From Planctomycetota bacterium (GTDB lineage: Bacteria > Planctomycetota > Planctomycetia > Pirellulales > UBA1268): 33,937 nt of DNA. The notes under the pieces are model-generated. The model saw only the letters and a list, made by a program, of their open reading frames with translations. It was not told where the DNA came from and did not search any database. A program made the position numbers and the translations under genes. The stretch is taken from contig VGZO01000044.1 in NCBI GenBank assembly GCA_016872555.1, positions 1 to 33,937 on the forward strand, read 5' to 3'. Below, in pieces: positions 114 to 13,484 of this stretch; within the stretch, counting starts at the first letter, position 1, and every line of letters begins with the position of its first letter.

Positions 114-1460
114 TCAGACCAATTCCGCCAGCGGCGCGTGGTGGTCGGTGAGGTACTGCGGTCGGCCGGTGAGGTCGGTGACCGTGGTCGCCTGCGGGTC
201 GATGCCGAGGCAGTGGTAGAGCGTGGCGTGGATCTCCTCGAAGCGCACCGGCCGGTCGCGGACCTCCGCGGCCTGCCGGTCGGTCGAGCCGATCACCTGC
301 CCGGTCCGCAGGCCGCCACCGGCCAACAGGGCGCAGGTCACCTGCGGCCAATGGTCGCGGCCGGCGTCCTTGTTGATCTTCGGCGTCCGCCCGAACTCCC
401 CCCACACGATCACGGCGACGTCGTCGGCCAGGCCGCGGGAGTGGAGATCCTCGACCAAGGCCGAGACCCCCTGGTCGAGCTGCGGGGCGTTTTCCCGGCA
501 GGCGCCGAAGTTGTTGCCGTGGTAGTCCCAGAAGCTGTAGCTCAGCGTCACGCAGCGCACCCCCGCCTCGACCAGCCGCCGCGCGGCGAGGAATTGCTGC
601 ATCAGCCGCGGGGCGCCGTCCCCCTGGTGCTTCTCGGTGCCGTAGCCGTAGCGGTCGCGGACTTCCTGCGGCTCGCGCGACACGTCGAGCGCCTCGGCCA
701 GCCGGCTCGACGTGAGGACGCCGAACGCCTGGCGCTGGAACGTGTCCATCCCGGCCATCATCCCCGAGCGGTCGGCCGAGCGGTTGAACGCGTCGAGCGC
801 CGCGACCAGCCCGGCGCGGTCGCCGAGGCGCTCGAGCGACAGTCCGTTGAGGACCAGGTCGCCGCGGGCATCGCCGTTGGGTTGGAACGGCGTGCACGAG
901 GGGCCGAGGAACCCCGGCTTGCCGGAGTTGTAGGGGGTGTGCTGCATCCGCGGCGACAGGCCGACGTAGGGGGGCGCCGCCGGGTGGGCCGCGCCGCGGA
1001 GCCGGGCCACGACCGAGCCGAATTCGGGCCAGCCGCCGGCCGGCTGGCGCTGGTGGCTGCGGCCGGTGAGGCACTGGAATGAATAGTGGTCGCCGGTGGC
1101 GCCGACGATCGAGCGGATCACGGCCAGCTTGTCGGCCATCCCCGCGAGGCGCGGGAGCAGCTCGGAAAACTCGATCCCGGGAACGTTGGTCGGGATCGGG
1201 CGGAACTCGCCGCGGATCTCGGCCGGGGCGTCGGGCTTGAGGTCGACGAGGTCCTGGTGGGGCGGTCCACCGGGGAGGTAGATCATGATCACCGCCTTGT
1301 GCGAGCGCGTGCCGGCGACGGCCTCGGCCCGGGCGAGATCGACCAGCGACACCCCCGCCGTGCCGCCGAGACCGGCCAGCGAGCCGATGCGGAGGAATTG
1401 CCGCCGCGCCAGGGTGTCGCAGAAGCCGCCGCGCGACCGGGCACCGACGATCGAGAGCAT
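114..1460 (-). CDS. DUF1501 family exported protein (copy 1)
   Basis: The 448-aa product is a full-length DUF1501 protein. The N-terminus has a twin-arginine-type signal (ARRQFLRIGSLAGLGG, about residues 18-33), so Tat export is likely. Family hallmarks are LPGGPPHQDLVDLKPDAP near residue 65, TNVPGIEF near 92, and a C-terminal block WGEFGRTPKINKDAGRDHWP. DUF1501 proteins are thought to share the alkaline phosphatase/sulfatase fold, and the histidines and aspartates of these blocks would fit metal ligands, but no substrate is established. The start is supported by GGAGAA 7 bases upstream. It lies 39 bp after the second DUF1501 gene (1500-2849) and is probably cotranscribed with it. The two are paralogues with different mid-regions. 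Confidence 0.9.
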   Translation of the reverse strand: MLSIVGARSRGGFCDTLARRQFLRIGSLAGLGGTAGVSLVDLARAEAVAGTRSHKAVIMIYLPGGPPHQDLVDLKPDAPAEIRGEFRPIPTNVPGIEFSELLPRLAGMADKLAVIRSIVGATGDHYSFQCLTGRSHQRQPAGGWPEFGSVVARLRGAAHPAAPPYVGLSPRMQHTPYNSGKPGFLGPSCTPFQPNGDARGDLVLNGLSLERLGDRAGLVAALDAFNRSADRSGMMAGMDTFQRQAFGVLTSSRLAEALDVSREPQEVRDRYGYGTEKHQGDGAPRLMQQFLAARRLVEAGVRCVTLSYSFWDYHGNNFGACRENAPQLDQGVSALVEDLHSRGLADDVAVIVWGEFGRTPKINKDAGRDHWPQVTCALLAGGGLRTGQVIGSTDRQAAEVRDRPVRFEEIHATLYHCLGIDPQATTVTDLTGRPQYLTDHHAPLAELV

Positions 1461-1499: not shown

Positions 1500-2849
1500 T
1501 CAGGCCAGCTCCGGCAGCGGCACGGCGCGTTCGAGGAGATACTGCGGCCGGCCGGTGTGATCGGCGAGGGGAACGGCGGCGGCGTCGATGCCGAGGTGGC
1601 GGTAGAGCGTCGCCAGGACCTCGGAGAAGTGGACCGGCCGGTCGGCGATGGCGCTGCCGGTGCGGTCGGTGGCGCCGATCACCTGCCCGGTGCGGAAGCC
1701 GCCGCCGGCGAGCAGCGCGCCGCCGACCTGCGGCCAGTGGTCGCGACCGGCGTCTTTGTTGATCAGCGGCGTGCGGCCGAATTCGCCCCATGCGCACACG
1801 GCCACGTCGCGGTCGAGGCCGCGGGCGTGGAGGTCTTCGACGAGCGCCGACAGCCCCTGGTCGAACTGCGGGAGGTGGGTGTTCTTCATGCCGTTGAAGG
1901 TGTCGGAGTGGAAGTCCCAGCGGCCGAAGTTGAGCGTCACGACGCGGCAGCCGGCCTCGACGAGCCGGCGGGCGACGAGGAAGTGCTCGAGGTTCCGCGG
2001 CGCGCCGTCACCGAAGCGCTGCGCGTCCCCCGTGCCGTAGCGCTCGCGGACGTGCGCCGGCTCGCGCGACACGTCGAGGGCCTCGGCCAGCCGGCTGCTG
2101 GTGAGGATGTCGAACGCCGACCGCGACAGGGCGTCCATGCCGTCGAGCGTGCGGCCGGCGTCGAGGTCGCGGCGGAGGCGGTCGACCGTGCCGAGGAGGC
2201 CGCGGCGGTCGGCGAGGCGCTCGGCCGACATCCCGCGGAGAACCATGTCGGTGCTCGCCGGACCGTTGGGGCGGAACGCGGCGTGCGACACGCCGAGGAA
2301 GCCCGGCAGCCCCGGCGAGCCGTAGGGAGGATGCCCGGCGTCGGGGGACAGGCCGACGAACGGCGGCACGGCGCGGTCGACCGGCCCGAGCAGCCGTGAC
2401 GCCACCGATCCGATGCTCGGCCAGCCGCCCGAGGGCTGGTTGCGGAGGGGGCGGCCTGTGTAGCAGATGAACGAGTCGTGGTTGCCGTCGGGGGAGCCGT
2501 ACACGCTCCGCAGCGGCACGCACTTGTCCATGATCGCCGCGAGCCGGGGCATGTGCTCGCAGATCTCGATCCCCGGCACGTTGGTCGGGATCGGCCGGAA
2601 CTCGCCGCGGATCTCCGCCGGCGCTTCCATCTTCAGGTCGTACATGTCCTGGTGCGCCGGCGCCCCGCACATGTAGATCATGATCACCGCGGTGTGCGAC
2701 CGCCGGCCGCTGGCCGCCTCGGCGGCCAGGACGTCGCGAAGCGACAGTCCGCCGACCGACAGCGTGCCGATGCGGAGCAGGTCGCGCCGGCGGATGCCGT
2801 CGCACAGCCGCTGGCCGCGGCGGGCCGAATCGTCGACGAGCGACAGCAT
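1500..2849 (-). CDS. DUF1501 family exported protein (copy 2)
   Basis: The product is 449 aa. The N-terminus carries a Tat-like motif (IRRRDLLRIGTLSVGG, about residues 19-34). Family blocks present are APAHQDMYDLK, EIRGEFRPIPTNVPG, VGLSPDAGHPPYGS and CAWGEFGRTPLINKDAGRDH. The cysteine in CAWGEFGRTP replaces the valine seen in the other two copies of this window. A strong ribosome site (GGGAGGGG) precedes the ATG by about 6 bases. It is the first gene of a minus-strand unit with the 114-1460 gene and is divergent from the third DUF1501 gene at 3153. The function of the family is unknown; a periplasmic or surface role is inferred from the signal. Confidence 0.9.
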   Translation of the reverse strand: MLSLVDDSARRGQRLCDGIRRRDLLRIGTLSVGGLSLRDVLAAEAASGRRSHTAVIMIYMCGAPAHQDMYDLKMEAPAEIRGEFRPIPTNVPGIEICEHMPRLAAIMDKCVPLRSVYGSPDGNHDSFICYTGRPLRNQPSGGWPSIGSVASRLLGPVDRAVPPFVGLSPDAGHPPYGSPGLPGFLGVSHAAFRPNGPASTDMVLRGMSAERLADRRGLLGTVDRLRRDLDAGRTLDGMDALSRSAFDILTSSRLAEALDVSREPAHVRERYGTGDAQRFGDGAPRNLEHFLVARRLVEAGCRVVTLNFGRWDFHSDTFNGMKNTHLPQFDQGLSALVEDLHARGLDRDVAVCAWGEFGRTPLINKDAGRDHWPQVGGALLAGGGFRTGQVIGATDRTGSAIADRPVHFSEVLATLYRHLGIDAAAVPLADHTGRPQYLLERAVPLPELA

Positions 2850-3152
2850 CGAAGACCCCTCCCGAGACGGGGTTTGGGGGACAGAACGTCTTTACTTTAC
2901 ACCGGCCACAGAGCGGGCACGACCGCGGTCCCCCGCTGGTTCAGTCGGCCGGTGGGGGCGGCCGACAGCAACGTGGAGTGGATTCCACGCCCGAGCAGGG
3001 AGCGACGCCGACCTCGCCCGTCGGCTCCAAGTCGTTTGCTCCACGAGGGATCGGACCGAAAGCGACCGGCGACTGGCCGCTGCATGCGGCACCGGGCGAG
3101 TGCGGGGAGTACATTTTCAGAACGGTTCGGCGCCGCTTCCGGAGGCCTCGCC
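2850..3152. promoter_or_regulatory. Divergent intergenic region with three inverted repeats
   Basis: These 303 bp separate two divergent DUF1501 genes and contain no convincing gene. The left part holds the only AT-rich patch (TTTACTTTACA, 2891-2901), a plausible promoter core for the leftward gene. Three inverted repeats follow within 68 bp: a perfect 10-bp palindrome GACCGCGGTC (2921-2930), an 8-bp stem GTCGGCCG/CGGCCGAC with a 7-base loop (2944-2966), and GTGGA/TCCAC with a 6-base loop (2973-2988). They could be operators shared by both genes or transcript hairpins. High GC makes chance palindromes common, so function is only suggested. Confidence 0.4.
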
Positions 3153-4505
3153 ATGCTCATGATCCGCGGCGGTGGTGGTCGGTTCTGCGACGGCGTCCGC
3201 CGGCGCGACTTCCTCGCCATCGGTGGGCTGTCGTTCGGCACCGGCGGGCTGTCGCTCGCCGGCGTCCTCCGCGCCCAGGCGGCGCAGAACCCGGGCCCGT
3301 CGGGAAACAGCCACAAGGCGGTGATCAACGTGTTCCTCGGCGGCGGTCCGCCGCACCAGGACATGTTCGACCTCAAGCCCGATGCCCCGAGCGAGATCCG
3401 CGGCGAGCTCGCCCCGATCGCCACCAACGTCCCCGGGATCCAGATCTGCGAGGTCTTTCCGCGCCTCGCGGCCCGCGCCGACAAGCTGGCGATCATCCGC
3501 TCGGTCGTCGGCTGCGAGGGGGCCCACGCCGCCTACCAGACCAACACCGGATGGCCGGAGGCGAACCTCCGCACGCTCGGTGGCCGGCCCTCACTCGGCT
3601 CGGCCGTCGCCCGGCTCGTCGGGCCGGTCGATCCCTCGGTGCCGCCGTTTGTCGGCCTGGCGGAGAAGACCTCCCACCGGCCGTGGTCCGACTCGGGCAC
3701 GCCCGGGTTCCTCGGCCCCGCCTACGGCCCGTTCAAGCCCGACGGCCCCGACCGCGACAACATGACGCTCAAGGACCTGTCGCTCGAGCGCCTCGGCGAC
3801 CGCCGCCGGCTGCTCGCCTCGGTCGACCGCCTCCGCCGTGAGGCCGACGCCTCCGGCACGATCGCCGGGATGGACGCCTTCTCGCAGCGCGCCTTCGACG
3901 TCCTCTCCGGCAGCAAGCTCCTCGACGCCCTCGACGTCTCGAAGGAGGATCCGGCGGTCCGCGCCGCCTACGGCGACGGCAAGCCCTACCACTTCCAGTA
4001 CGACGGCGCCCCGACCTGCAACGACCATCTGCTCATCGCCCGGCGCCTCGTCGAGGCGGGGGTCCGGGTGGTCAGCCTGTCGTATGGCCGGTGGGACAGC
4101 CACGGGCAGAACTTCGCGCTGGTGCGCGATCACGGCGCCAAGCTCGACCAGTGCCTCTCGGCGCTGCTCGACGACCTCGCCGCGCGGGGGATGCTCGACG
4201 ACGTCGCCGTCGTCGTGTGGGGGGAGTTCGGGCGGACGCCGAAGATCAACAAGGATGCCGGTCGCGACCACTGGCCGCAGGTGAGTTGTGCGCTCCTCGC
4301 CGGCGGCGGCCTCCGCACCGGCCAGGTGATCGGTGCCACCAACCGCTTCGGCGAACATGCCACCGAACGGCCGGTGCACGTCCAGGAGATCGTCGCCACG
4401 CTCTACCACGCCCTCGGGTTCCGGACCCACGAGGTCACGATCACCGACCAGACGGGGCGGCCGCAGTACCTCGTCGAGCGCGACCCGATCGCCGAGCTGG
4501 TCTGA
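3153..4505 (+). CDS. DUF1501 family exported protein (copy 3)
   Basis: The 450-aa product starts at the ATG at 3153, preceded by GGAGG 7 bases upstream. The frame is open further upstream, but that extension has no family similarity and would run into the divergent gene. A Tat-like signal (VRRRDFLAIGGLSFG) lies at about residues 15-29. The conserved blocks GGGPPHQDMFDLKPDAP, TNVPGIQICE and VVWGEFGRTPKINKDAGRDH are intact. It resembles copy 1 most closely in the C-terminal block. It ends 12 bp before the convergent stop of the WD40/cytochrome gene. DUF1501 genes usually travel with a DUF1549/DUF1553 gene, and one lies at 10648-13167, so this copy may be its partner despite the opposite strand. 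Confidence 0.9.
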   Translation: MLMIRGGGGRFCDGVRRRDFLAIGGLSFGTGGLSLAGVLRAQAAQNPGPSGNSHKAVINVFLGGGPPHQDMFDLKPDAPSEIRGELAPIATNVPGIQICEVFPRLAARADKLAIIRSVVGCEGAHAAYQTNTGWPEANLRTLGGRPSLGSAVARLVGPVDPSVPPFVGLAEKTSHRPWSDSGTPGFLGPAYGPFKPDGPDRDNMTLKDLSLERLGDRRRLLASVDRLRREADASGTIAGMDAFSQRAFDVLSGSKLLDALDVSKEDPAVRAAYGDGKPYHFQYDGAPTCNDHLLIARRLVEAGVRVVSLSYGRWDSHGQNFALVRDHGAKLDQCLSALLDDLAARGMLDDVAVVVWGEFGRTPKINKDAGRDHWPQVSCALLAGGGLRTGQVIGATNRFGEHATERPVHVQEIVATLYHALGFRTHEVTITDQTGRPQYLVERDPIAELV

Positions 4506-4517
4506 CGTCCGGCCGCG

Positions 4518-7500
4518 TCACGGCGCGGCGGGAGACGGCTCGAGCGTGTGGACGATCTTGCCGTCGCCCGCCGACCAGATCCGCAGCTTGCCGTCCTGGC
4601 AGCCGGCGGCGAGCCAGCCCGGGGCCGCGGCGAGGACCTGGACGAAGTCGCCGACGCCGTCGAAGTTCCGCACCGTTCCGCCGTTGCCGGCGTTGTAGAT
4701 CCGCACCGTCGGATCCCCGGAGGCGGCGGCCACCTCCTCGCCCGGCGGCAGGAAGCGGACCGCCGTCGCCTCCTTCTTGAGCCCCGCGATCGTCCGCTGC
4801 TGCTCGCCGGAGACGACGTCCCAGACCTTGAGCGAGTTGTCGGCGCCGGCGCTGGCCAGCCGCCGGCCGTGGGCCTGCCAGGCGACGCCGAGGACGTGGC
4901 CGGTGTGCCCCTCGAAGCTCTTCATGTGCTTGCCGTCGGCGACGGCGTGGACCTTCACGAACCGGTCGGTCCCGCCGGAGGCGAGCAGGTCGCCGGCGCG
5001 CGAGAACTCGAGGGCCACCACCGTGTCGGAGTGGGGACTGGTGAGCTCGCGGGCCAGGGCGCCGTCGCCGACGGTCCAGAGCTTGATCTCGCCGGACCGG
5101 CTCGGCCTCCCACCGCCGCTGGCCAGGAGCGCCCCATCGGGGGAGAAGGCCAGTGCCGTGACGACGTCGACCGGCGGCGTGCCCGCAGTCTCTTCGCTCA
5201 CCGGCGGCAGCGTCTCGCCGCCGATCGTGCGCTCGTGGACCCAGCGCGGCACGCAGGCCCAGGCGGCCGCGGGAGCCGCCCCGCCGCCGATGACGACGCG
5301 CGCCGGATCGAAAAACGCGATCGTGCCCCGCCCCCCTTCGCCGCCACACTCCCAGGCATCGCGCGGCTGGCCGTCGGCTCCGGAGAGGAGGACGGCCACG
5401 CCGTCGGCCCCGAGGGCGACCAGCCACGCCCCGTCGGGCGACCAGGCGACGCCGGCGAGCGGCTTCTCGGCGGCGGTCCGCGCCGCGTCGAGCGTGCCGC
5501 GCGCCTGCTCCGCGACGGTGGTGCGGGCTTCCGTCTCGGCCAGTTCCGTTTTCCGCACCGGCAGTGTCTCGTCGGCGCGCTTCGCCTGCTGGCCGGCAAA
5601 GTCGACGGCGCGCTTGGCGCTGGCCAGCGCCGTCTCGGCCTGCTTGACCGCCTCGGTCGCCGCGGTCGCCGCCTTGGCCGCCTCGGCGGCCTTCTTGGTC
5701 ATCTCGTCGACCTTCGCCTTGGAACGCTCGATCTGCTGGGCGGCCTGGGCCACGGCCTGGTCGGCGGCGGCCTTCGCGGCGGTGGCGCCGGCGGCCACCG
5801 ACTGGAACGTCTTGAGCGTCTCGGCGGCGGCGGCGTCACCGGCACTGCTGGCGGCGACGGCGGCGAACGCGTTGGCACTGGCGGTGGCCGTCTCGACCGC
5901 CGCGGCCGCCGCGGCCTGCGCCTTGACGGAGGCGGCCTGCGCCTCGGTGGCCTGGGCGACGGCGGTGGTGGCGACGACGACCGCCTTGTCGGCCTCGTCC
6001 TTGGCGGCAAGCGTTCCCTTGGCCGCCTCCTGCTTCTCCCCCATCGTCTTCTCGGCCGCGGCGAGCTTCTCGCCCGACTGCTTCGTCTCGGCGGCGGCCG
6101 CCTCGATCCCCTTCTCGGCCTCGGTGACCCGCGCCTTGCCGTACTCCACGTCCTGCTTGCGGACGGCCAGATCGACGTCGGCGGCGCGGAGGCGCTCGAC
6201 GAGGCGGTGGTCCCCCTTCCATTCGCCGGCGGGCTGGCCGTTCGTCAGATCCCAGAGCTTCACGCCGGGGACGGTGCCCACGGTCGCCGCCCGGGCGCCG
6301 TCGGGGCGAACCGCGAAGCCGCTGACCGGCCCGCCGTGGGCCATCTGGCGGACGACGCTCGCGCCGTCGATGTTCCACAAGCGCAGCGTGCCGTCGGCCC
6401 CGGCGGAGAGCAGATGGCCCGGAGGTGTGGCCAACGGCGAAAGCACGGTGACTGGCTGGCCGCCGGCGGGAAGCTCCTTGAGCGGCGCCGGGGCCGCGGC
6501 GGGATCGGCGTCGGGGGGGGGCAGGGGAAGCTGCCAGATGCGGATCACGCCGTCGGCGTCGGCCGCCGCGATCCGGTCGTCGGCCACGCGCGCCAGCGCC
6601 ATCACCTCGCCCGGGCGCTTGAGCCGGCCGACGAGCGTGCCGTCGGCGGCGGCGCTGACGGCGATCGAGGTGTCGCGCGACGAGGAGATGACGAGCGAGC
6701 CATCGGCCGAGAACGCCACGCCGGTGACCGGGGAGGCATGGGGCTGGATCGTCCGCCGCGCCGCGGCGCTGGCGCCATCGGCGAGGGCGATCTGCCCGTC
6801 AGCACGGCCGATGGCGATCAGGCCCCCGACCGGCGCGATCGCGACGGCGGTGGCCTGCTGCGAATCGGCGAACGTCACGTGGCCGGGGCGCTCGCGGCGC
6901 CACAGCTTCACGGTGCGGAAGCTGCCGGAGGCGATCCGGTCGTCGGTCGGGGAGATCGCCAGCGCCCCGATGGTGTCGAGGTGGGCGACGCCGGCGGGGC
7001 CACCGTTGCTGACGAGCGTCGGATCCTCGAGGGCCCCGAGGAGCCGGCCGGTGGCGGTGTCGAACAGGCTGACGCGCCCGCCGCGCGCCGCCGCCGTGAC
7101 GCGTCCGTCGGCCGACAGTGCCGCGGCGAGAACGCCCCCCTGGCCGAGAGGCATCGGCTTCCAGGCGATCGGTCCGCGCGCCGCCGCCGGCCCCGCCTTG
7201 GCCCCCTCGTCGATCCACCGTGCGAGCAGGCCGAGCTGCTCCGGGGAGAGGTGCTTGGCGCCGACCTTGTTGTCGGCCGGCGGCATCGGGTCGTCCTGGC
7301 GGTGGGCGGCGCGGAGGAAGACGAGGCTCTCGAGCCCCTTGCCGGGGACCACGGCCGGGCCGGAATCGCCGCCGGCGGCCAGTGCCTGGGAGCTGTCGAG
7401 CCGCAGCCCCCCCTCCTTGATCTTCTCGTTGTGGCAGGCGGTGCAGTTGGCGGCGAGGAACGGCTTGATGTCGGCCTCGAACCCGACCGGCTCGGTGCGC

Positions 7501-7676
7501 GTCGGGGGGGCGACGGGGAGGCCGTCGGCGGCGACGGCGAGCGCCGCCAGGCTCGAAGCCATGCCGATCACGAGCCCCACACCGGCCAGCGGCGGCGCCG
7601 ATCGGGGACCGCGGAGGGAGCCCACCTGGGCGCTCGGGCAGGCCTCGCGCGCAGCGGGCGTCGGACGGGCGTTCAT
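4518..7676 (-). CDS. Planctomycete cytochrome c-like / WD40 repeat protein with internal coiled coil
   Basis: The product is 1052 aa. A hydrophobic segment at about residues 28-52 suits a signal or anchor. A planctomycete-type cytochrome domain follows (about 65-150) with CTACH at 78-82, a CxxCH heme-binding motif, and an MPP motif near 131-133 that could supply an axial methionine. WD40-like repeats occupy about 165-490 and again about 735-1052 (for example LRLWNIDG, VKVHAVADGK and LKVWDVVSG). Between them sits about 240 residues of Ala/Lys/Glu-rich sequence (about 490-730) expected to form a long coiled coil, which splits the propeller region in two. The start is supported by AGGAG 9 bases upstream. 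It is the last gene of the unit after the PPC-domain gene, 30 bp apart. A periplasmic scaffold or electron-transfer role is inferred only. Confidence 0.88.
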   Translation of the reverse strand: MNARPTPAAREACPSAQVGSLRGPRSAPPLAGVGLVIGMASSLAALAVAADGLPVAPPTRTEPVGFEADIKPFLAANCTACHNEKIKEGGLRLDSSQALAAGGDSGPAVVPGKGLESLVFLRAAHRQDDPMPPADNKVGAKHLSPEQLGLLARWIDEGAKAGPAAARGPIAWKPMPLGQGGVLAAALSADGRVTAAARGGRVSLFDTATGRLLGALEDPTLVSNGGPAGVAHLDTIGALAISPTDDRIASGSFRTVKLWRRERPGHVTFADSQQATAVAIAPVGGLIAIGRADGQIALADGASAAARRTIQPHASPVTGVAFSADGSLVISSSRDTSIAVSAAADGTLVGRLKRPGEVMALARVADDRIAAADADGVIRIWQLPLPPPDADPAAAPAPLKELPAGGQPVTVLSPLATPPGHLLSAGADGTLRLWNIDGASVVRQMAHGGPVSGFAVRPDGARAATVGTVPGVKLWDLTNGQPAGEWKGDHRLVERLRAADVDLAVRKQDVEYGKARVTEAEKGIEAAAAETKQSGEKLAAAEKTMGEKQEAAKGTLAAKDEADKAVVVATTAVAQATEAQAASVKAQAAAAAAVETATASANAFAAVAASSAGDAAAAETLKTFQSVAAGATAAKAAADQAVAQAAQQIERSKAKVDEMTKKAAEAAKAATAATEAVKQAETALASAKRAVDFAGQQAKRADETLPVRKTELAETEARTTVAEQARGTLDAARTAAEKPLAGVAWSPDGAWLVALGADGVAVLLSGADGQPRDAWECGGEGGRGTIAFFDPARVVIGGGAAPAAAWACVPRWVHERTIGGETLPPVSEETAGTPPVDVVTALAFSPDGALLASGGGRPSRSGEIKLWTVGDGALARELTSPHSDTVVALEFSRAGDLLASGGTDRFVKVHAVADGKHMKSFEGHTGHVLGVAWQAHGRRLASAGADNSLKVWDVVSGEQQRTIAGLKKEATAVRFLPPGEEVAAASGDPTVRIYNAGNGGTVRNFDGVGDFVQVLAAAPGWLAAGCQDGKLRIWSAGDGKIVHTLEPSPAAP

Positions 7677-7706
7677 CGGGTCAACTCCTGCGAAACAGGG
7701 TGGGCG

Positions 7707-10574
7707 TCACGGCTGTGCCGGCGCCTCGATCACGAGCGCCAGCGGCCGGCGGGCCGTGATCTCGCGGTCATTGAATTTCAGCTTCGTCGTCAGCACCAGC
7801 TCGTGTCGGCCCGGCGCCGCGTCGGCCGCGGCGGTGAGCTTGACGATTCCCTGCGACTGGTCGGCGGGAATGGTGACCGGCGCGAGCGCGAGCCCGGCGA
7901 CCGGCTTGGCGGTCGAGGGTTCGACGACGACCTCGCCGGCGAAGCCGTAGCGCCTCGCGATCGGCACGGCGAGGTCGGCGGCCGCCCCCGGCGCGACCTT
8001 GATCTCGTCGGCGAGGCCGTCGAGCGCGACCGGCATCTCGTGGACGACCAGCGCGATCGAGGGCACGACCAGCGGCACGTCGACGTCCTTCGGGGCCGCG
8101 GCGGTGGCGGCGTCGGCGGCGAGCTTCTCGCGCCGTGCCTTCTCGTCGGCGGCGGTCTTGGCGGCGGCCTCGGCGTCGGCCATCGCCTTGGCGGCGGCTT
8201 CGCGGGCGGCGACGACATCGGCCGGTGGCTCGGTGCCCGCCCCCTTGATCTCGGCGAGCTTGGCCTCGGCGGCGGCCAGCGCCTGCTTGGCCCCCTCGGT
8301 GGCCGTGGCCCGCTGCTGGGCGATGCCGGCGACGCGCTCGGCATCGGCCTTGAGCCGGGCGGCGGCTTCGGGGTTGCGCGCGAACGCCGTCTTTGCCACG
8401 CCGCGGAGGACGATCCGGTATTCCCCCGGCGGCAGCTTGGGATCGACGTCGATCTCGGCCGTGGCGGCGGTCGCCGCCTCCTCGATCTTCACCTCGACGA
8501 CCTTCAGCTCCCCCGGCAGCCCGGGCGCGGTCAGCGACACCGCCCCCTTCGCCCCGGGGCGGCGGACGAGCGCCAGCGGCACCGAGAGCTTGCCGCCGCG
8601 GGCGGTCTCGCGGACGGCGCGGTCCTGCTCGGTGACCGTCAGCGGCGCCGCGTCGGGGATCACGGCGAGCGGAATTTCGCGCACCATCCGCACCAGCTGC
8701 GGCTGGTTCTGGTTGTCGACGTTCCAGCGGAGCATCGCCGGCCGTGCGGTGCGGGCGACGTCAGCCTCGCCGATCCGGCTCTTGCCGGTGATCCGGAAGG
8801 TCCCGGCGAACGGCGCCGTACCGTCGGCGGCGGTGAGCACGAGCGTCCCGCGGTTGGCCTTCCCGGGGATCGACAGCGGCGGGGCGCTGACGCCGGCGGG
8901 GAGCCCCTCGGCCTCGATCACGACGTCGCCGCCGAAGCCGTCGCGGCGGACGACGAGGATGTCGACCGGCAGCGCGCCGCCGATCGGCAGGCTCGCCGCG
9001 GCGAGCTGCTGGCGATTGCCGTCGGCGCGGTTGGGATGCGAGAGCAGGGCGACGACCTCGAAGTCGGGCGTGGGGCGGCGGGCCTCGAGGACGTAGACAT
9101 GATGGGGTGCCGCGTGCGAGTCGGCAGCGAGATCGCGGACGAGCACCCGGTAGGTGCCGTCGGCCGGTGCACGGAACTCGAGCAGCGGGTCGGCGCTCGG
9201 CCGATCGACCAATGGCCCGGCGAACTCGGCCGGACCGTCGTCGGCGGAGGCGACCTCCTTCCCCACCGGCCGGCCGGCGGCGTCGGTCGAGAGGCTCTCG
9301 ACGAGCAGCGCCGGATCGGTGGGGAGGCCGTAGCGGGCCGAAGTGACCTCGAGCCAGAAGACGTCGCCGGCCTTGGCGGTGAACGAATACCAGTCGCGGT
9401 CGCGCCGCGGCTGGAACCGGCCGGCGACGGCTCCGGGGATCTCGAGCGCCTGCGGCGCGGCGGGGTCGTCGTTGGGCTCGTGCTCGCGGATCACCGGCGC
9501 CGTGACCGCCAGCGCCGCCGGCGGCTGCGCCGCGGCGTCGAGGACGCCACCGGACAGGTCGGCGAGCGGGGCCGCGGCATCGCGCGGCGCGAACAGGCGC
9601 CAGGCGAACCGCGCGGTCGCGCCCGCGGCCGGTGCGCCCATCCGGGCGTCGACGACGACCTGCTCGAGCCCCTCGTTGCCCCCTTCGATGAGCGCCGGGC
9701 TGCCCCCCGGGAGCCCCTTGCCGAAGACCTCGACGCGCGTCGTCTCGCCGGCGCGCCCCGCGGGGGGGAAGACGAAGTCGACCCACGGGCCGGTCGAGCA
9801 GACGAGGCGGTAGAAGGTCTCGTCGCCGCCGGAGGCGAACAGGTCGTGGACGCGGACGACATGGCGGCCGGCGGCCGGCACGGCGACGTCGATGAACGGA
9901 TCGTCCTGGCGCGTGCCGCGGGCGACGGCGATCTCGCGCCCCGACGGATCGACCAGCGAAAGCACCGGCACCATCCGCGAGTCGAGTCGCCGGCACCAGA
10001 CCTCGAGGTGGATCCGCTGCCCGGCCGCCAGCTCCAGCGCGTAATGGTCGGCCTTGGCGGCCGTCGTCCGGGCGGCGACGGCGCCGTCGGCCGGCACCGC
10101 GAGCGCCGCCGCGGCACTGTCGCAGTCCTTTTCCTTGACGACCTGCGGCGTCGCCGAGACGGCGAAGGCGCGGACGTTGCTGACGCCGAACCTGGCCACC
10201 GCAGCGGCGTCGTAGATCCCCGGCGGCACGTCGGCGGCGATCGCGACCACGAGCTTGCCGGGCACCGGCCGCGGTTCGGGATCGAACTCGGTCGGCTCGG
10301 CCAGGACCGGACGGGCGATGATCCCGGGATGGGAGAACAGCAGCCCCCGCACGTCGTCGAGGTCGGGGCCGGCGATCGTCACCGTCACCTCGGTGCCGCG
10401 CTGGCCCCCGGCCGGATGGATCGCGGTCAGCAGGGGCTGGGGCAGTTCGGCGACGGCCGGGACCGCGGCGATCGCGGCCAGCGCCAGGACGGCGGCCAGC
10501 CGCCGCGGCGACGGCGGGCCGGCCCTTCGATCGCAGCCGGCGCCCGACGGCCCGCGCAGCGTGAGGCGTTGCAT
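7707..10574 (-). CDS. PPC-domain exported protein with Ala-rich coiled coil
   Basis: The 955-aa product is read from the ATG at 10574; a GTG at 10592 is the alternative start. A basic stretch and hydrophobic segment (RRLAAVLALAAIAAVPAVAE, near residues 24-43) form a signal peptide. The mature start LTAIHPAGGQRGTEVTVTIAG resembles the IPT/Ig-like opening common in this planctomycete family. A pre-peptidase C-terminal-like domain begins near residue 360 (HEPNDDPAAPQ, then DRDWYSFTAKAGD). An Ala/Lys/Glu-rich segment at about 731-821 should form a coiled coil, and beta-rich domains flank it. It lies 73 bp after the DUF1549/DUF1553 gene and 30 bp before the WD40/cytochrome gene. No enzymatic motif is visible, so it is probably a surface or periplasmic binding or structural protein. 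Confidence 0.83.
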   Translation of the reverse strand: MQRLTLRGPSGAGCDRRAGPPSPRRLAAVLALAAIAAVPAVAELPQPLLTAIHPAGGQRGTEVTVTIAGPDLDDVRGLLFSHPGIIARPVLAEPTEFDPEPRPVPGKLVVAIAADVPPGIYDAAAVARFGVSNVRAFAVSATPQVVKEKDCDSAAAALAVPADGAVAARTTAAKADHYALELAAGQRIHLEVWCRRLDSRMVPVLSLVDPSGREIAVARGTRQDDPFIDVAVPAAGRHVVRVHDLFASGGDETFYRLVCSTGPWVDFVFPPAGRAGETTRVEVFGKGLPGGSPALIEGGNEGLEQVVVDARMGAPAAGATARFAWRLFAPRDAAAPLADLSGGVLDAAAQPPAALAVTAPVIREHEPNDDPAAPQALEIPGAVAGRFQPRRDRDWYSFTAKAGDVFWLEVTSARYGLPTDPALLVESLSTDAAGRPVGKEVASADDGPAEFAGPLVDRPSADPLLEFRAPADGTYRVLVRDLAADSHAAPHHVYVLEARRPTPDFEVVALLSHPNRADGNRQQLAAASLPIGGALPVDILVVRRDGFGGDVVIEAEGLPAGVSAPPLSIPGKANRGTLVLTAADGTAPFAGTFRITGKSRIGEADVARTARPAMLRWNVDNQNQPQLVRMVREIPLAVIPDAAPLTVTEQDRAVRETARGGKLSVPLALVRRPGAKGAVSLTAPGLPGELKVVEVKIEEAATAATAEIDVDPKLPPGEYRIVLRGVAKTAFARNPEAAARLKADAERVAGIAQQRATATEGAKQALAAAEAKLAEIKGAGTEPPADVVAAREAAAKAMADAEAAAKTAADEKARREKLAADAATAAAPKDVDVPLVVPSIALVVHEMPVALDGLADEIKVAPGAAADLAVPIARRYGFAGEVVVEPSTAKPVAGLALAPVTIPADQSQGIVKLTAAADAAPGRHELVLTTKLKFNDREITARRPLALVIEAPAQP

Positions 10575-10647
10575 GACGCGATTCCCGGCCACCGCCCCGG
10601 CCCTGCCGCCGGCCCGGTTTCCGGGACCGGCCGCCCCGCCCGCCGGA

Positions 10648-13167
10648 CTAGTGGTTGAAGAGGAACTCCTTGGTGTTGAGCAGCGACCAGATCACGTCCT
10701 CGAAGGCCGCCGGACGGTTGTCGGCGTGGGCCGCGAGGTACTGCTCGACCAGGGCCCGTTCCTCCGCCGTCGGCGCCCGCGAGAACGCCACCCGGTAGAG
10801 CTCGGCGATCTTCGCCGCGTCATCGCGGCCGGCGTCGGTGGCGAGCTTGCCCGCCCGGCCGTCGGCACCGCCGACCTTGCCGAGGATGTCGGCGGAGTTG
10901 ATGAGGTGGATGCTCTGGGCGAGATTCGCCTCGCTGACCCGCTCGCACTCGCAGGCGCTGTCGCCGTTGGGCCGGCCGAAGACGGTGAGGAAGTAATTGT
11001 TGAAGTTGGGGTCGGGGAGCTGCACCGCGCGCGTGCCGGCGAGCGTGCCGCCGAACGCCGTCGACTTGCCGGAGAGGCTGTCGATGGCGTCGAGCGCCGT
11101 CTCCGCGGAGAGTCGCCGCGGGTAGAACCGCGAGAAGGCCTGCCGGTCCTCGGCGTTGAACTCGTTGGGCTCGGCCGAGAGCTGGTAGGTGGCCGAGTTG
11201 CAGATCGTCCGCACGAGGTGCTTGAGGTCGTAGCCGTGGGCGACGAAATCGGCCGCCAGGGCGTCGAGCAGCGCGGGGTTGGTCGGCGGGTTGGTGAGCC
11301 GCATGTCGTCCTCCGGCTCGACCAGCCCGCGCGAGAAGAAGTGCTTCCAGTAGCGGTTGACGGCCGACCGGGCGAAGAACGGGTTGTCGGCGGCGGTCAT
11401 CCACTCCGCCAGCGCCGCCCGCGGATCGGTGTCGGCGGGGATCTCGGCCGGCTCGGCGCCCAGCGCCACCGCCTTGTGGGTGCCCTTCGGGCCGGCGGCC
11501 TGCGGCATGCCGCGGGCGTGGAAGATCCGGTCCTCGCCCGGCTGGGCCCCCTTCTTACGGCCGACGCGCGAGAAGAAGGCGGCGAGCTGGTAGTAGTCCT
11601 CGGTGCTCCACTTCTCGAACGGGTGGTGGTGGCAGCGGGCGCACTGCAGCCGCAGCCCGAGGAACAGTTGCGACGCGTCCTCGACCTGCTGGTTGGCCTC
11701 GGCGACCTGGCGGAACCAGACCACCGCCGGGTTGGTGCCGACCTCGCCGGAGGCGGTGAGGATCTCGCGGACGAATTGGTCGAACGGCTTGTTGTCGAGC
11801 AGGCTCTGCCGGATCCAGGCGTGGAACGCGTAGCTGCCGCGGCGGTGGAGGGTGTCGTCGGTGCGCTTGTTGCGGAGGATCGCCGCCCACTTGTTGGCGA
11901 ACGTGTCGGCGTAGTCGGGGCTGTCGAGGAGCCGGTCGATCGCCTTGGCCCGCTTGGCGGGGTCGGCATCGGCGAGGAAGGCGTCTGTCTCGGCGACGGT
12001 GGGCAGCCGGCCGGCGACGTCGACGGTGACGCGGCGGAGGAAGGTGGCGTCGTCGCACGGCGCCGACGGCGGCAGGCCGAGGAGACGGAGGTAGTCGAGG
12101 ACGTGGCCGTCGACGAAGTTCTTCGCGAACGCCTCCGGCGCCGGCATCCGCTCGGCGGGCGACTCCATCGGGATCGTGCCGCGGAACACCGCCACCTGGC
12201 TCTGGTAGCGGATCATCAGGCCGACGCTGCCGCTGCGCGGAGCCCCCTCGCCCCGCGGCGTGGCGCTGACCAATCCGGCGCTGTCGACGCTGGCCAGGTC
12301 CGGGGCGTTGACCTCGTACTGCGCCATGCTCGTCACGTCCTCGCGCGAGCCGTCTGAATACAGCGCCATCACCCGGACCTGCTGGGTTTGGCCCGGGAGG
12401 AGGATCCGCGCGGTCGGGAAGACCTCGATCCCGGTCACCTTGCGGGCGGCGGGATCGGCGGGGCGGGCCCCCTCGGCGATCCAGCGGGCGATCGTCCGCT
12501 CGCTCGGCGAACCGGTCTCGATGAGGCGGCCGCCGCCGTGCGGGACCAGTGCCGTGGCCTTGGCGAGGAGCAGACTCTCCTCCGGGGCGACCAGCGACAC
12601 GCGCCGGCCGCGGGCTTCCTTGACGAGGTGCTCGTGGTCCTCGGCCGGCTCGAAACCGAGCAGCGACAGGCGGAAGCCGTTTTGGCCGCCGCTCTTGCCG
12701 TGGCAGCCGCCGCCGTTGCAGCCGTGTTTGGTGAACACCGGGACGACGTCGACGGCGAGGTCGAGCGGCGGGTCGGCGCCGAACCGTTCGACGACGAGGG
12801 GCACGCGGGCGTCGGCACAGCCTTCGAGGTGGACGACGATCTCGCCGCGGCCGTCGGCGGCGGGGACGACCATCCCGCGTGGCGACACGGTGGCCAGCCC
12901 CGCAGGCTCGACGGCGTAGGAGACGGCGCCGGTCACGTCGCGGACGGGGGCCCCGCCCGGCGCGGCCAGCGCCGTGACGACGAGCTGCCGCCGCCCCTCG
13001 GTGCCGACGATCGTGACGGCCGAGCCGTCGGAGCCACCGGTCGAGATATCGAGGACCGACACCCCCGCAGGTGGGGTCTGGCCTGGGCCGTCGGCGCGGC
13101 CGACGGCCGTTGCCGAAACCACCAGTCCGATCGCGAGCAGGGCGCAGCGACGCAGCGGCTCTGGCAT
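10648..13167 (-). CDS. DUF1549 and DUF1553 domain exported protein with cytochrome-like motif
   Basis: The start is set at the ATG at 13167 because GGAGGAG lies about 7 bases upstream and a signal peptide follows directly (LRRCALLAIGLVVSATAVG). The frame extends to 13215 but lacks these signs. The product is 839 aa. An Ig-like region (about 30-130) precedes HGCNGGGCHGK at 149-158, whose C-X4-CH spacing differs from the usual CxxCH. A second Ig-like (Big-2-like) segment follows. DUF1549 covers about 360-555 and ends in CARCHHHPFEKW near 510. DUF1553 covers about 590-820 (NRYWKHFFSRGLVEPEDDMR, SAETALDAIDSLSG). It heads the unit 13167-4518. Members are abundant in planctomycetes and of unproven function; heme binding is an inference from the motifs. 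Confidence 0.9.
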   Translation of the reverse strand: MPEPLRRCALLAIGLVVSATAVGRADGPGQTPPAGVSVLDISTGGSDGSAVTIVGTEGRRQLVVTALAAPGGAPVRDVTGAVSYAVEPAGLATVSPRGMVVPAADGRGEIVVHLEGCADARVPLVVERFGADPPLDLAVDVVPVFTKHGCNGGGCHGKSGGQNGFRLSLLGFEPAEDHEHLVKEARGRRVSLVAPEESLLLAKATALVPHGGGRLIETGSPSERTIARWIAEGARPADPAARKVTGIEVFPTARILLPGQTQQVRVMALYSDGSREDVTSMAQYEVNAPDLASVDSAGLVSATPRGEGAPRSGSVGLMIRYQSQVAVFRGTIPMESPAERMPAPEAFAKNFVDGHVLDYLRLLGLPPSAPCDDATFLRRVTVDVAGRLPTVAETDAFLADADPAKRAKAIDRLLDSPDYADTFANKWAAILRNKRTDDTLHRRGSYAFHAWIRQSLLDNKPFDQFVREILTASGEVGTNPAVVWFRQVAEANQQVEDASQLFLGLRLQCARCHHHPFEKWSTEDYYQLAAFFSRVGRKKGAQPGEDRIFHARGMPQAAGPKGTHKAVALGAEPAEIPADTDPRAALAEWMTAADNPFFARSAVNRYWKHFFSRGLVEPEDDMRLTNPPTNPALLDALAADFVAHGYDLKHLVRTICNSATYQLSAEPNEFNAEDRQAFSRFYPRRLSAETALDAIDSLSGKSTAFGGTLAGTRAVQLPDPNFNNYFLTVFGRPNGDSACECERVSEANLAQSIHLINSADILGKVGGADGRAGKLATDAGRDDAAKIAELYRVAFSRAPTAEERALVEQYLAAHADNRPAAFEDVIWSLLNTKEFLFNH

Positions 13168-13484
13168 GGGCCAACTCCTCCGCAGGCGGGATCCACGAAT
13201 CGAACGGACCGTCAAGTATCCCCCAGTCCGGACAGGATCGCAAAGACGGGCTGGAAACGGCCGTTGTAAAATGTACGCAACTTTATACCACCACCATGTT
13301 TATGGCATCACATCCGACTTTTTCGCGCCGCGCTTCCCGAAACCGCTGCCGCGCTGAACGAAACCTGACAAGTCAGTCCAGGTCGAGTGTCCGAAACGCC
13401 ACCGATCGCCTACCGTAGGCCGAATTGGAAACCCAGCGTCCCCGTCCCCCTCCCCGAGGGTGGATCGCCGACCTCAGGCACTCG
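13168..13484. promoter_or_regulatory. Divergent promoter region between the DUF1549 gene and cysD
   Basis: The 317 bp contain no credible gene. An AT-rich core (about 13264-13303) stands out from its surroundings. Read leftward it gives TGGTATAAA, an extended -10-like element (TATAAA at 13282-13287) suited to the DUF1549 gene, about 115 bases upstream of its start, but no good -35 is visible. On the cysD side an inverted repeat CTGAC-AA-GTCAG (13365-13376) lies about 110 bases before the start, followed by CAGGT that partly matches the preceding ACCTG. It could be an operator for sulfur control. The assignment is weak because planctomycete promoters are poorly defined. Confidence 0.35.

What the first reader, a model, noticed from the sequence alone, without database searches (positions are those of the whole stretch)
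5440..6210. Long Ala-rich coiled coil splits the WD40 region of a cytochrome-like protein
About 240 residues of Ala/Lys/Glu heptad-like sequence sit between two WD40 segments, behind a CxxCH domain. This would place two propellers at the ends of a rod tethered near a heme, an architecture with no established role.
Basis: partly seen in the sequence, partly recalled or inferred. Interest (0 to 1): 0.5.

Follow-up and report, generated by a model that had tools for sequence, protein, structure and literature searches.

The report
Coiled-coil hairpin inside nested cytochrome propellers
A planctomycete heme protein appears to carry a long arm, about 18 nanometres, that folds back on itself and grows out of one wheel-shaped domain nested inside another; close relatives share this layout, but what the arm does is unknown.

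Summary
In detail: ORF 4518-7676 (-), 1052 aa, is a PSCyt1 (CxxCH) protein with WD40 repeats and a 246-residue Ala-rich, heptad-periodic segment. The rod geometry does not hold. AlphaFold2 gives two equal helices (490-610, 615-735) joined by a 4-residue turn, read here as an antiparallel hairpin. The propellers are nested, not consecutive: single seven-bladed propellers align to model residues 178..1046, and four natural single-propeller relatives lack the middle. The outer ring is blades 1-2 plus 10-14; the inner ring, inserted in outer blade 2, is itself interrupted by the hairpin. The hairpin (165-312 aa) is in 78 of 78 measurable proteins from the best-scoring 80 loci of a genome scan (Planctomycetota, Verrucomicrobiota), a set biased towards it; other searches gave hairpin-free relatives, which form one side of a deep branch. 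The gene sits in a recurrent cassette PSD1 - PPC - PSCyt1/WD40, whose PPC protein has its own shorter hairpin; one relative fuses the PPC and WD40 proteins. Best reading: a periplasmic c-type-cytochrome scaffold whose arm spaces or bundles a three-protein redox complex. The structure is well supported by computation; the function is inferred.

The parts
4518..7676 (-). PSCyt1 / WD40 / hairpin protein, 1052 aa (P0001)
7527..7676 (-). N-terminal 50 residues, likely Sec signal peptide (hydrophobic run ending AVAADG); pLDDT under 50
   Evidence: sequence; the signal peptide is inference, no predictor was run
7272..7445 (-). PSCyt1 domain, residues 78-135: C78-x-x-C81-H82 and M131-P-P
   Evidence: Pfam PF07635 E 1.6e-14; C78, C81, H82, M131 invariant in the 69 sequences of A2; Met as axial ligand is inference
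6891..7145 (-). outer propeller, first part: blade 1 and strands a-c of blade 2 (residues about 178-262)
   Evidence: single-propeller relatives; borders approximate
6210..6890 (-). inner propeller, first part: about 5 blades (residues about 263-489)
   Evidence: borders approximate
5472..6209 (-). coiled-coil hairpin: helix 490-610, turn 611-614, helix 615-735
   Evidence: AlphaFold2; heptad period; conserved insertion point
5835..5846 (-). hairpin tip (residues 611-614)
5247..5471 (-). inner propeller, second part: about 2 blades (residues about 736-810)
   Evidence: borders approximate
4539..5246 (-). outer propeller, second part: last strand of blade 2 and blades 3-7 (residues about 811-1046)
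   Evidence: borders approximate
7707..10592 (-). PPC-domain multi-beta-domain protein, 961 aa (P0002), partner gene, 30 bases upstream
   Evidence: PF04151; model pLDDT 86.5; neighbour in related loci
8100..8372 (-). second, shorter hairpin in the PPC protein: helices 741-784 and 791-831
10648..13215 (-). PSD1 protein: Big_2, PSCyt2 (DUF1549), PSD1 (DUF1553); CX4CH near residue 166 and CxxCH at residue 525
2478..4505 (+). DUF1501 gene, convergent with the WD40 gene (the domain starts at ORF residue 280, so the true start is probably further in)

Best explanation
An exported c-type-cytochrome scaffold. A PSCyt1 heme domain is followed by an outer seven-bladed WD40 propeller; a second propeller is inserted into its blade 2; an antiparallel Ala-rich coiled-coil hairpin of about 18 nm is inserted between two blades of that inner propeller. 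Supported by computation: the domains, the symmetric two-helix element, the nesting, its conservation and the recurrent gene cassette. Inferred: the protein acts in the periplasm with its two cassette partners, the PPC protein (which has its own hairpin) and the PSD1 protein (which has two further heme-like motifs), as one redox complex. In it the propellers are docking surfaces and the hairpin is an arm that spaces the complex or bundles with another hairpin, in the partner or in a second copy.
For: Model with helices 490-610 and 615-735, pLDDT 87.2, pTM 0.74. Heptad period 3.5. Nesting: single 7-bladed chains such as 7bie_A (Z 41.5, rmsd 1.4, 282 aligned of 286) align to model range 178..1046; in the 50 rows shown the range starts at 176-192 and ends at 1026-1051. 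Four single-propeller relatives (L189, L190, L191, L167) go from strands a-c of outer blade 2 to its last strand and blades 3-7, lacking the middle; L191 keeps about 45 residues of linker there. Hairpin-free relatives skip the hairpin positions with only 15-57 bases between the flanking matches (G126, G095, G083, G137). Insert in 78 of 78 measured homologues of the genome scan. Cassette: of 50 loci with at least 7 kb upstream of the WD40 ORF, 39 have PPC and PSD1 upstream on the same strand. A natural PPC-WD40 fusion in L114. CX4CH in 46 and CxxCH in 48 of 48 PSD1 orthologues, window included, by plain motif search. PSCyt1 is fused to PSCyt2-PSD1 in two other proteins of the same genome.
Against: No experiment; no coordinates or PAE were available, so the antiparallel packing is read from the secondary structure, the short turn and the hairpin-free homologues. 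The tip has lower confidence (pLDDT 63-73). The two hairpins are not strictly coupled: the PPC hairpin is scored absent in 5 of 83 pairs with a WD40 hairpin (one of the five, L113, has a 64-residue insert by alignment), the single-propeller relative L167 has a PPC hairpin but none of its own, and the two lengths do not correlate (Spearman -0.09, 56 pairs). The co-presence amounts to one deep event on the tree. The 78 of 78 comes from the 80 best-scoring of 461 loci for a hairpin-bearing query, so it overstates prevalence. In 11 of the 50 loci the PPC-PSD1 order was not found. The fusion is a single MAG.
Confidence: 0.55

Rival explanations
1. Open rod: the helical segment is one extended rod of about 36 nm that holds two complete consecutive propellers apart.
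For: Two long helices with only a short break; the WD40 repeats do fall on both sides in sequence.
Against: Single propellers align to residues 178..1046, so one ring uses blades from both sides of the segment; single-propeller relatives show that composition; hairpin-free relatives have 15-57 bases where the hairpin would be. If the inner ring has blades on both sides of the segment, an open 36-nm rod cannot lie between them.
Confidence: 0.05
2. The hairpin is only a tolerated low-complexity expansion, an Ala-rich insert that grows and shrinks by repeat slippage and has no partner and no function.
For: Length varies widely, 165-312 aa; residue conservation along the arms is low and flat; the hairpin-free clade shows that the fold does without it; paired length changes on the two arms could not be shown.
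Against: On the tree of 104 WD40 proteins every one of the 83 hairpin-bearing rows lies on one side of a branch, and the only row without a hairpin on that side is the single-propeller L167. The heptad period holds in both arms of the 249-aa and 291-aa classes, though in the 165-aa class only in arm 2. Helix-breaking residues stay near the midpoint of the PPC hairpin in 42 of 54 (13.8 expected); for the WD40 hairpin 30 of 78 (11.9 expected).
Confidence: 0.2
3. Homo-oligomerisation arm: the hairpin pairs only with a second copy of itself (four-helix bundle) and has nothing to do with the PPC hairpin.
For: The PPC hairpin can be absent while the WD40 hairpin stays, 5 of 83 pairs; hairpin lengths are uncorrelated.
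Against: Both hairpins separate the same two sides of the tree; cassette and fusion tie the two proteins together.
Confidence: 0.2

Closest known systems
Planctomycete-specific cytochrome proteins with PSCyt1 and WD40 domains (PF07635 + PF00400; PMC5615132, section 13 read)
   Same: PSCyt domains combined with WD40 and Big_2 domains, in genomes rich in PSCyt/PSD genes. [quoted passage not shown]
   Different: The section and passages read do not mention a coiled-coil hairpin, nested propellers or the PSD1-PPC-WD40 cassette; its supplement was not seen.
Tandem WD40 propellers of known structure (Aip1 1nr0, Utp21 4nsx; Foldseek rows)
   Same: Two WD40 propellers in one chain.
   Different: TM-scores about 0.2 of the query; neither their blade order nor any insertion was compared here.
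Length-variable antiparallel coiled-coil arms of chemoreceptors and SMC proteins (recalled; one search gave search listings only)
   Same: Two-helix antiparallel arms whose length varies between homologues.
   Different: No sequence or fold relation was tested; here the arm leaves a beta-propeller of a probably exported cytochrome protein.

Membership tests
PSCyt1 (PF07635) c-type cytochrome domain | Pfam gathering score | tested here: met
   54.7 bits against a cut-off of 22
PSCyt1 (PF07635) c-type cytochrome domain | CxxCH heme motif and a distal Met | tested here: met
   C78, C81, H82, M131 invariant in 69 aligned sequences; by plain search CxxCH in 134 and MPP in 135 of 140 ORFs, some of them partial and a few near-duplicates
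PSCyt1 (PF07635) c-type cytochrome domain | Covalently bound heme | not testable with these tools
   needs heme stain and spectroscopy
WD40 beta-propeller (PF00400) | WD40 repeats and seven-bladed ring | tested here: met
   182 bits against 27; Z 41.5 to 7bie_A, rmsd 1.4 over 282 residues
Two consecutive propellers joined by a rod | Each ring made of consecutive blades on one side of the coil | tested here: not met
   ring spans model residues 178..1046; single-propeller relatives
Antiparallel coiled-coil hairpin | Two helices of equal length with a short turn, and heptad periodicity | tested here: met
   121 + 121 residues, turn of 4; period 3.5 in both arms of the 249-aa and 291-aa classes, in arm 2 only of the 165-aa class
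Antiparallel coiled-coil hairpin | The two helices pack against each other antiparallel | tested here: inconclusive
   no coordinates or PAE at hand; inferred from turn, equal arms and hairpin-free relatives
Antiparallel coiled-coil hairpin | Length changes come in matched pairs on the two arms | tested here: inconclusive
   share of even splits 0.247 of 566 pairs against 0.20 in the control; 5 of 28 distinct lengths are 11 modulo 14

The most novel reading that the evidence does not exclude
A family of exported heme proteins that varies by nesting: a propeller in a propeller, a length-variable coiled-coil arm in the inner propeller, and in some members about 600 further WD-rich residues. With the hairpin-bearing PPC protein and the PSD1 protein with its two heme-like motifs it would form a rod-shaped, multi-heme periplasmic assembly in which the two hairpins bundle and set the distance between redox sites. 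None of the paper searches made here turned up such an assembly.
Probability: 0.2. Interest if true: 0.65.

Novelty: new variant of a known kind. Interest (0 to 1): 0.42.

Why it matters
The PSCyt/PSD proteins are numerous and uncharacterised in Planctomycetota and Verrucomicrobiota (R. baltica alone has 41 copies of each of two of these domains, passage of PMC2754498). A recurrent three-gene cassette with a natural fusion, natural hairpin-free and single-propeller forms and a defined heme domain turns a vague 'cytochrome-like' annotation into a complex that can be expressed and tested. The coexisting forms also make a good case for studying how nested propellers and inserted arms are gained and lost; the order of these events is not settled here.

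Tried and rejected
Open-rod geometry: rejected. Hairpin at the junction of two consecutive propellers, my own first reading: rejected. Coupled presence of the two hairpins as independent co-evolution: 78 both, 19 neither, 5 WD40 only, 0 PPC only among 102 pairs, but on the tree the hairpin-free pairs are one side of a branch and the independent-pairs test has no power. Correlated hairpin lengths: none. Symmetric indels: inconclusive (WD40 0.247 of 566 pairs, PPC 0.263 of 217, controls 0.20 each). Tip at the midpoint, with a crude helix-breaker score: 42 of 54 for PPC (13.8 expected; 16 of 18 length classes), 30 of 78 for WD40 (11.9 expected; only 8 of 28 length classes); an earlier version with less masking and a band of 0.45-0.55 gave 35 of 54 and 26 of 78. 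Conservation falling off towards the tip: not seen in 55 non-redundant inserts. Reading the forms as an order of evolution: not supported, since the single-propeller L191 lies inside the hairpin-free side and L167 on the hairpin side of the tree, so the inner propeller may have been lost. Foldseek against the PDB with the PPC model gave ciliary central-apparatus, macroglobulin, complement and Ig-type chains with TM at most 0.15 of the query in the 50 rows shown; taken as unspecific.

Rows dropped before counts; of 81 sources (80 loci and the window) 78 had a WD40 ORF of at least 850 aa and 57 a PPC ORF of at least 600 aa; of 146 WD40 rows, 6 at or under 500 bits, the fused L114 and the rows without a PPC ORF within -600 to 1500 bases on the same strand. 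L167, L156 and L165 fell outside that filter and were put back by hand, where L115 was left out. Of the 29 WD40 rows without a hairpin, 21 are on the tree (20 in the hairpin-free side, and L167) and 8 are not. Near-duplicates of one genome in two collections were not all removed (for example L107 and L192 are identical).

Paper searches found nothing that describes the hairpin, the nesting or the cassette; only open-licence PMC papers are held, so this is no proof of absence. Seen: section 13 and passages of PMC5615132; passages of PMC5587647, PMC11495043 and PMC2754498; all others as search listings only.

Full report
What is there. The ORF at 4518-7676 (-) codes for 1052 residues. Pfam finds PSCyt1 at 78-135 (54.7 bits, cut-off 22) and many WD40 models. 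It is one third Ala (83 of 249) and has a hydrophobic period of 3.5 residues in both arms of the 249-aa and 291-aa classes; in the window sequence alone, and in the 165-aa class, only the second arm is significant.

It is conserved. Of 79 genomes (the window's own and relatives) 40 have a match at E up to 1e-80. A scan of named genome contigs found 461 loci that encode some relative and returned the 80 best: by record title 62 Planctomycetota, 17 Verrucomicrobiota and one unassigned (some MAG titles name unlikely species). Of these 80 and the window, 78 WD40 ORFs were long enough to measure, and 78 of 78 carry the insert at the same point, 165 to 312 residues long, with peaks at 165, 207, 249 and 291. 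The query itself has the hairpin and only the best 80 were kept, so this set is biased towards hairpin-bearing proteins.

It is a hairpin. AlphaFold2 with 69 sequences gives pLDDT 87.2 and pTM 0.74, with helix 490-610, a turn 611-614 and helix 615-735. Two equal helices of 121 residues make an arm of about 18 nm (at 1.5 angstrom per residue, recalled). I had no coordinates, so 'antiparallel' rests on the short turn, the equal arms and the next two points.

The propellers are nested. When the model was compared with solved structures, the best chains were single seven-bladed propellers, for example 7bie_A with Z 41.5, rmsd 1.4 and 282 of 286 residues aligned, over the model range 178..1046; in the 50 rows shown the range starts at 176-192 and ends at 1026-1051. 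One ring therefore uses blades from before and after the coil. Four natural relatives with a single propeller (L189, L190, L191, L167) agree: they run from strands a-c of blade 2 to the last strand of that blade and the five C-terminal blades, and lack what lies between residues of about 262 and 811 of the window protein; L191 keeps about 45 residues of linker there. So the outer propeller is blades 1-2 and 10-14, the inner one is the seven blades between, and the hairpin sits between the fifth and sixth blade of the inner one. Borders are approximate and the blade count is my reading of the strands.

There are several forms. Single-propeller proteins; double propellers without hairpin (for example L148-L150; the matches on either side of the hairpin positions are 15-57 bases apart in G126, G095, G083 and G137; alignment); double propellers with hairpin; and proteins of about 1570-1790 aa with roughly 600 further residues. 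The extra part is clearest in L163, at window residues 386-398, a loop of the inner propeller; in the others the alignment blocks are scattered over about 263-422. On a quick tree of 104 WD40 proteins without their hairpins, the 20 proteins with no hairpin in either partner (19 of double-propeller size, and the single-propeller L191) are one side of a branch with SH-aLRT 100; the 83 hairpin-bearing ones and L167 are on the other. The root is not inferred, so gain and loss cannot be told apart, and the two places of the single-propeller forms suggest that some of them lost the inner propeller.

The cassette. Upstream lie a PPC-domain protein (7707-10592) and a PSD1 protein with Big_2, PSCyt2 and PSD1 domains (10648-13215). 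Of 50 loci with at least 7 kb upstream of the WD40 ORF, 39 have PPC and PSD1 upstream on the same strand (gene table). The PPC protein has its own hairpin, helices 741-784 and 791-831; 54 of 57 measured PPC proteins have 64-187 residues there, the other three being L080, L084 and L062, of which the PPC ORF of L062 is not the cassette partner. One MAG (L114) has a single 1809-aa ORF with the PPC part, a coil-like stretch seen by eye, PSCyt1 and the WD40 part with its hairpin. The PSD1 protein has a CX4CH and a CxxCH motif, found by plain search in 46 and 48 of 48 orthologues, window included; the two without CX4CH are ORFs cut at a contig end. Whether they bind heme is not known. Elsewhere in the same genome PSCyt1 is fused to PSCyt2-PSD1 (two proteins).

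Do the two hairpins go together? Scored by composition, with a clear gap between present and absent for the WD40 protein and a narrower one (6.7 to 11.0) for PPC, 102 adjacent pairs give 78 both, 19 neither, 5 WD40 only, none PPC only. L167 is a case of PPC only but fell outside the distance filter. In genomes G150 and G111 one cassette has both hairpins and a second cassette neither; G165 shows the same by the ORFs. On the tree, however, the pattern is one deep event plus separate absences of the PPC hairpin, so it is not evidence of repeated co-evolution. Lengths do not correlate.

How it may work. The N-terminal region looks like an export signal, and the CxxCH and MPP motifs are invariant in 69 sequences, so the protein is most likely a periplasmic c-type cytochrome fused to a scaffold. 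Propellers usually dock other proteins (general knowledge); the cassette and the fusion point to the PPC and PSD1 proteins as partners; the arm is then a spacer or a bundling element. The last steps are inference. The literature seen says that these proteins are abundant, that nothing is known of their functions, and that WD40 genes of planctomycetes are often next to DUF1501 genes (PMC5615132 section 13; PMC5587647 passages).

Verdict. Real and conserved, more structured than reported and differently built: not two propellers on a rod, but an arm growing out of a propeller within a propeller. A new variant of the known PSCyt1-WD40 proteins, function open.

Noticed in passing
L114:672-6098: One uninterrupted 1809-aa ORF fuses the PPC protein to the PSCyt1-WD40-hairpin protein.
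   Followed up: partly
L162, L163, L164, L198, L205, L206, L207: Family members of about 1570-1790 aa with roughly 600 extra residues, WD-rich where checked, clearest in L163 at the loop that corresponds to window residues 386-398: probably further nested propellers.
   Followed up: partly
L204:8198-11944: A 1249-aa member from the window's own family whose coil-like segment is about 475 residues long, almost twice that of the window protein.
   Followed up: no
window 10648-13215 (-): The PSD1 protein has an unusual CX4CH motif (CNGGGCH) besides a CxxCH inside PSCyt2; by plain search both occur in orthologues (46 and 48 of 48).
   Followed up: partly
window 4548-10658 (+): A 2036-aa open frame antisense to the WD40 and PPC genes; no homology was sought, most likely a by-product of high GC content.
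   Followed up: no
window 114-1460, 1500-2849 (-), 2478-4505 (+): Three DUF1501 genes next to the cassette; the plus-strand one carries a twin-arginine-like RRDFLAIGG stretch just ahead of its domain.
   Followed up: no
G111, G150, G165 (L157/L166, L155/L154, L156/L153): Genomes with two paralogous cassettes, one with hairpins in both proteins and one with hairpins in neither.
   Followed up: partly
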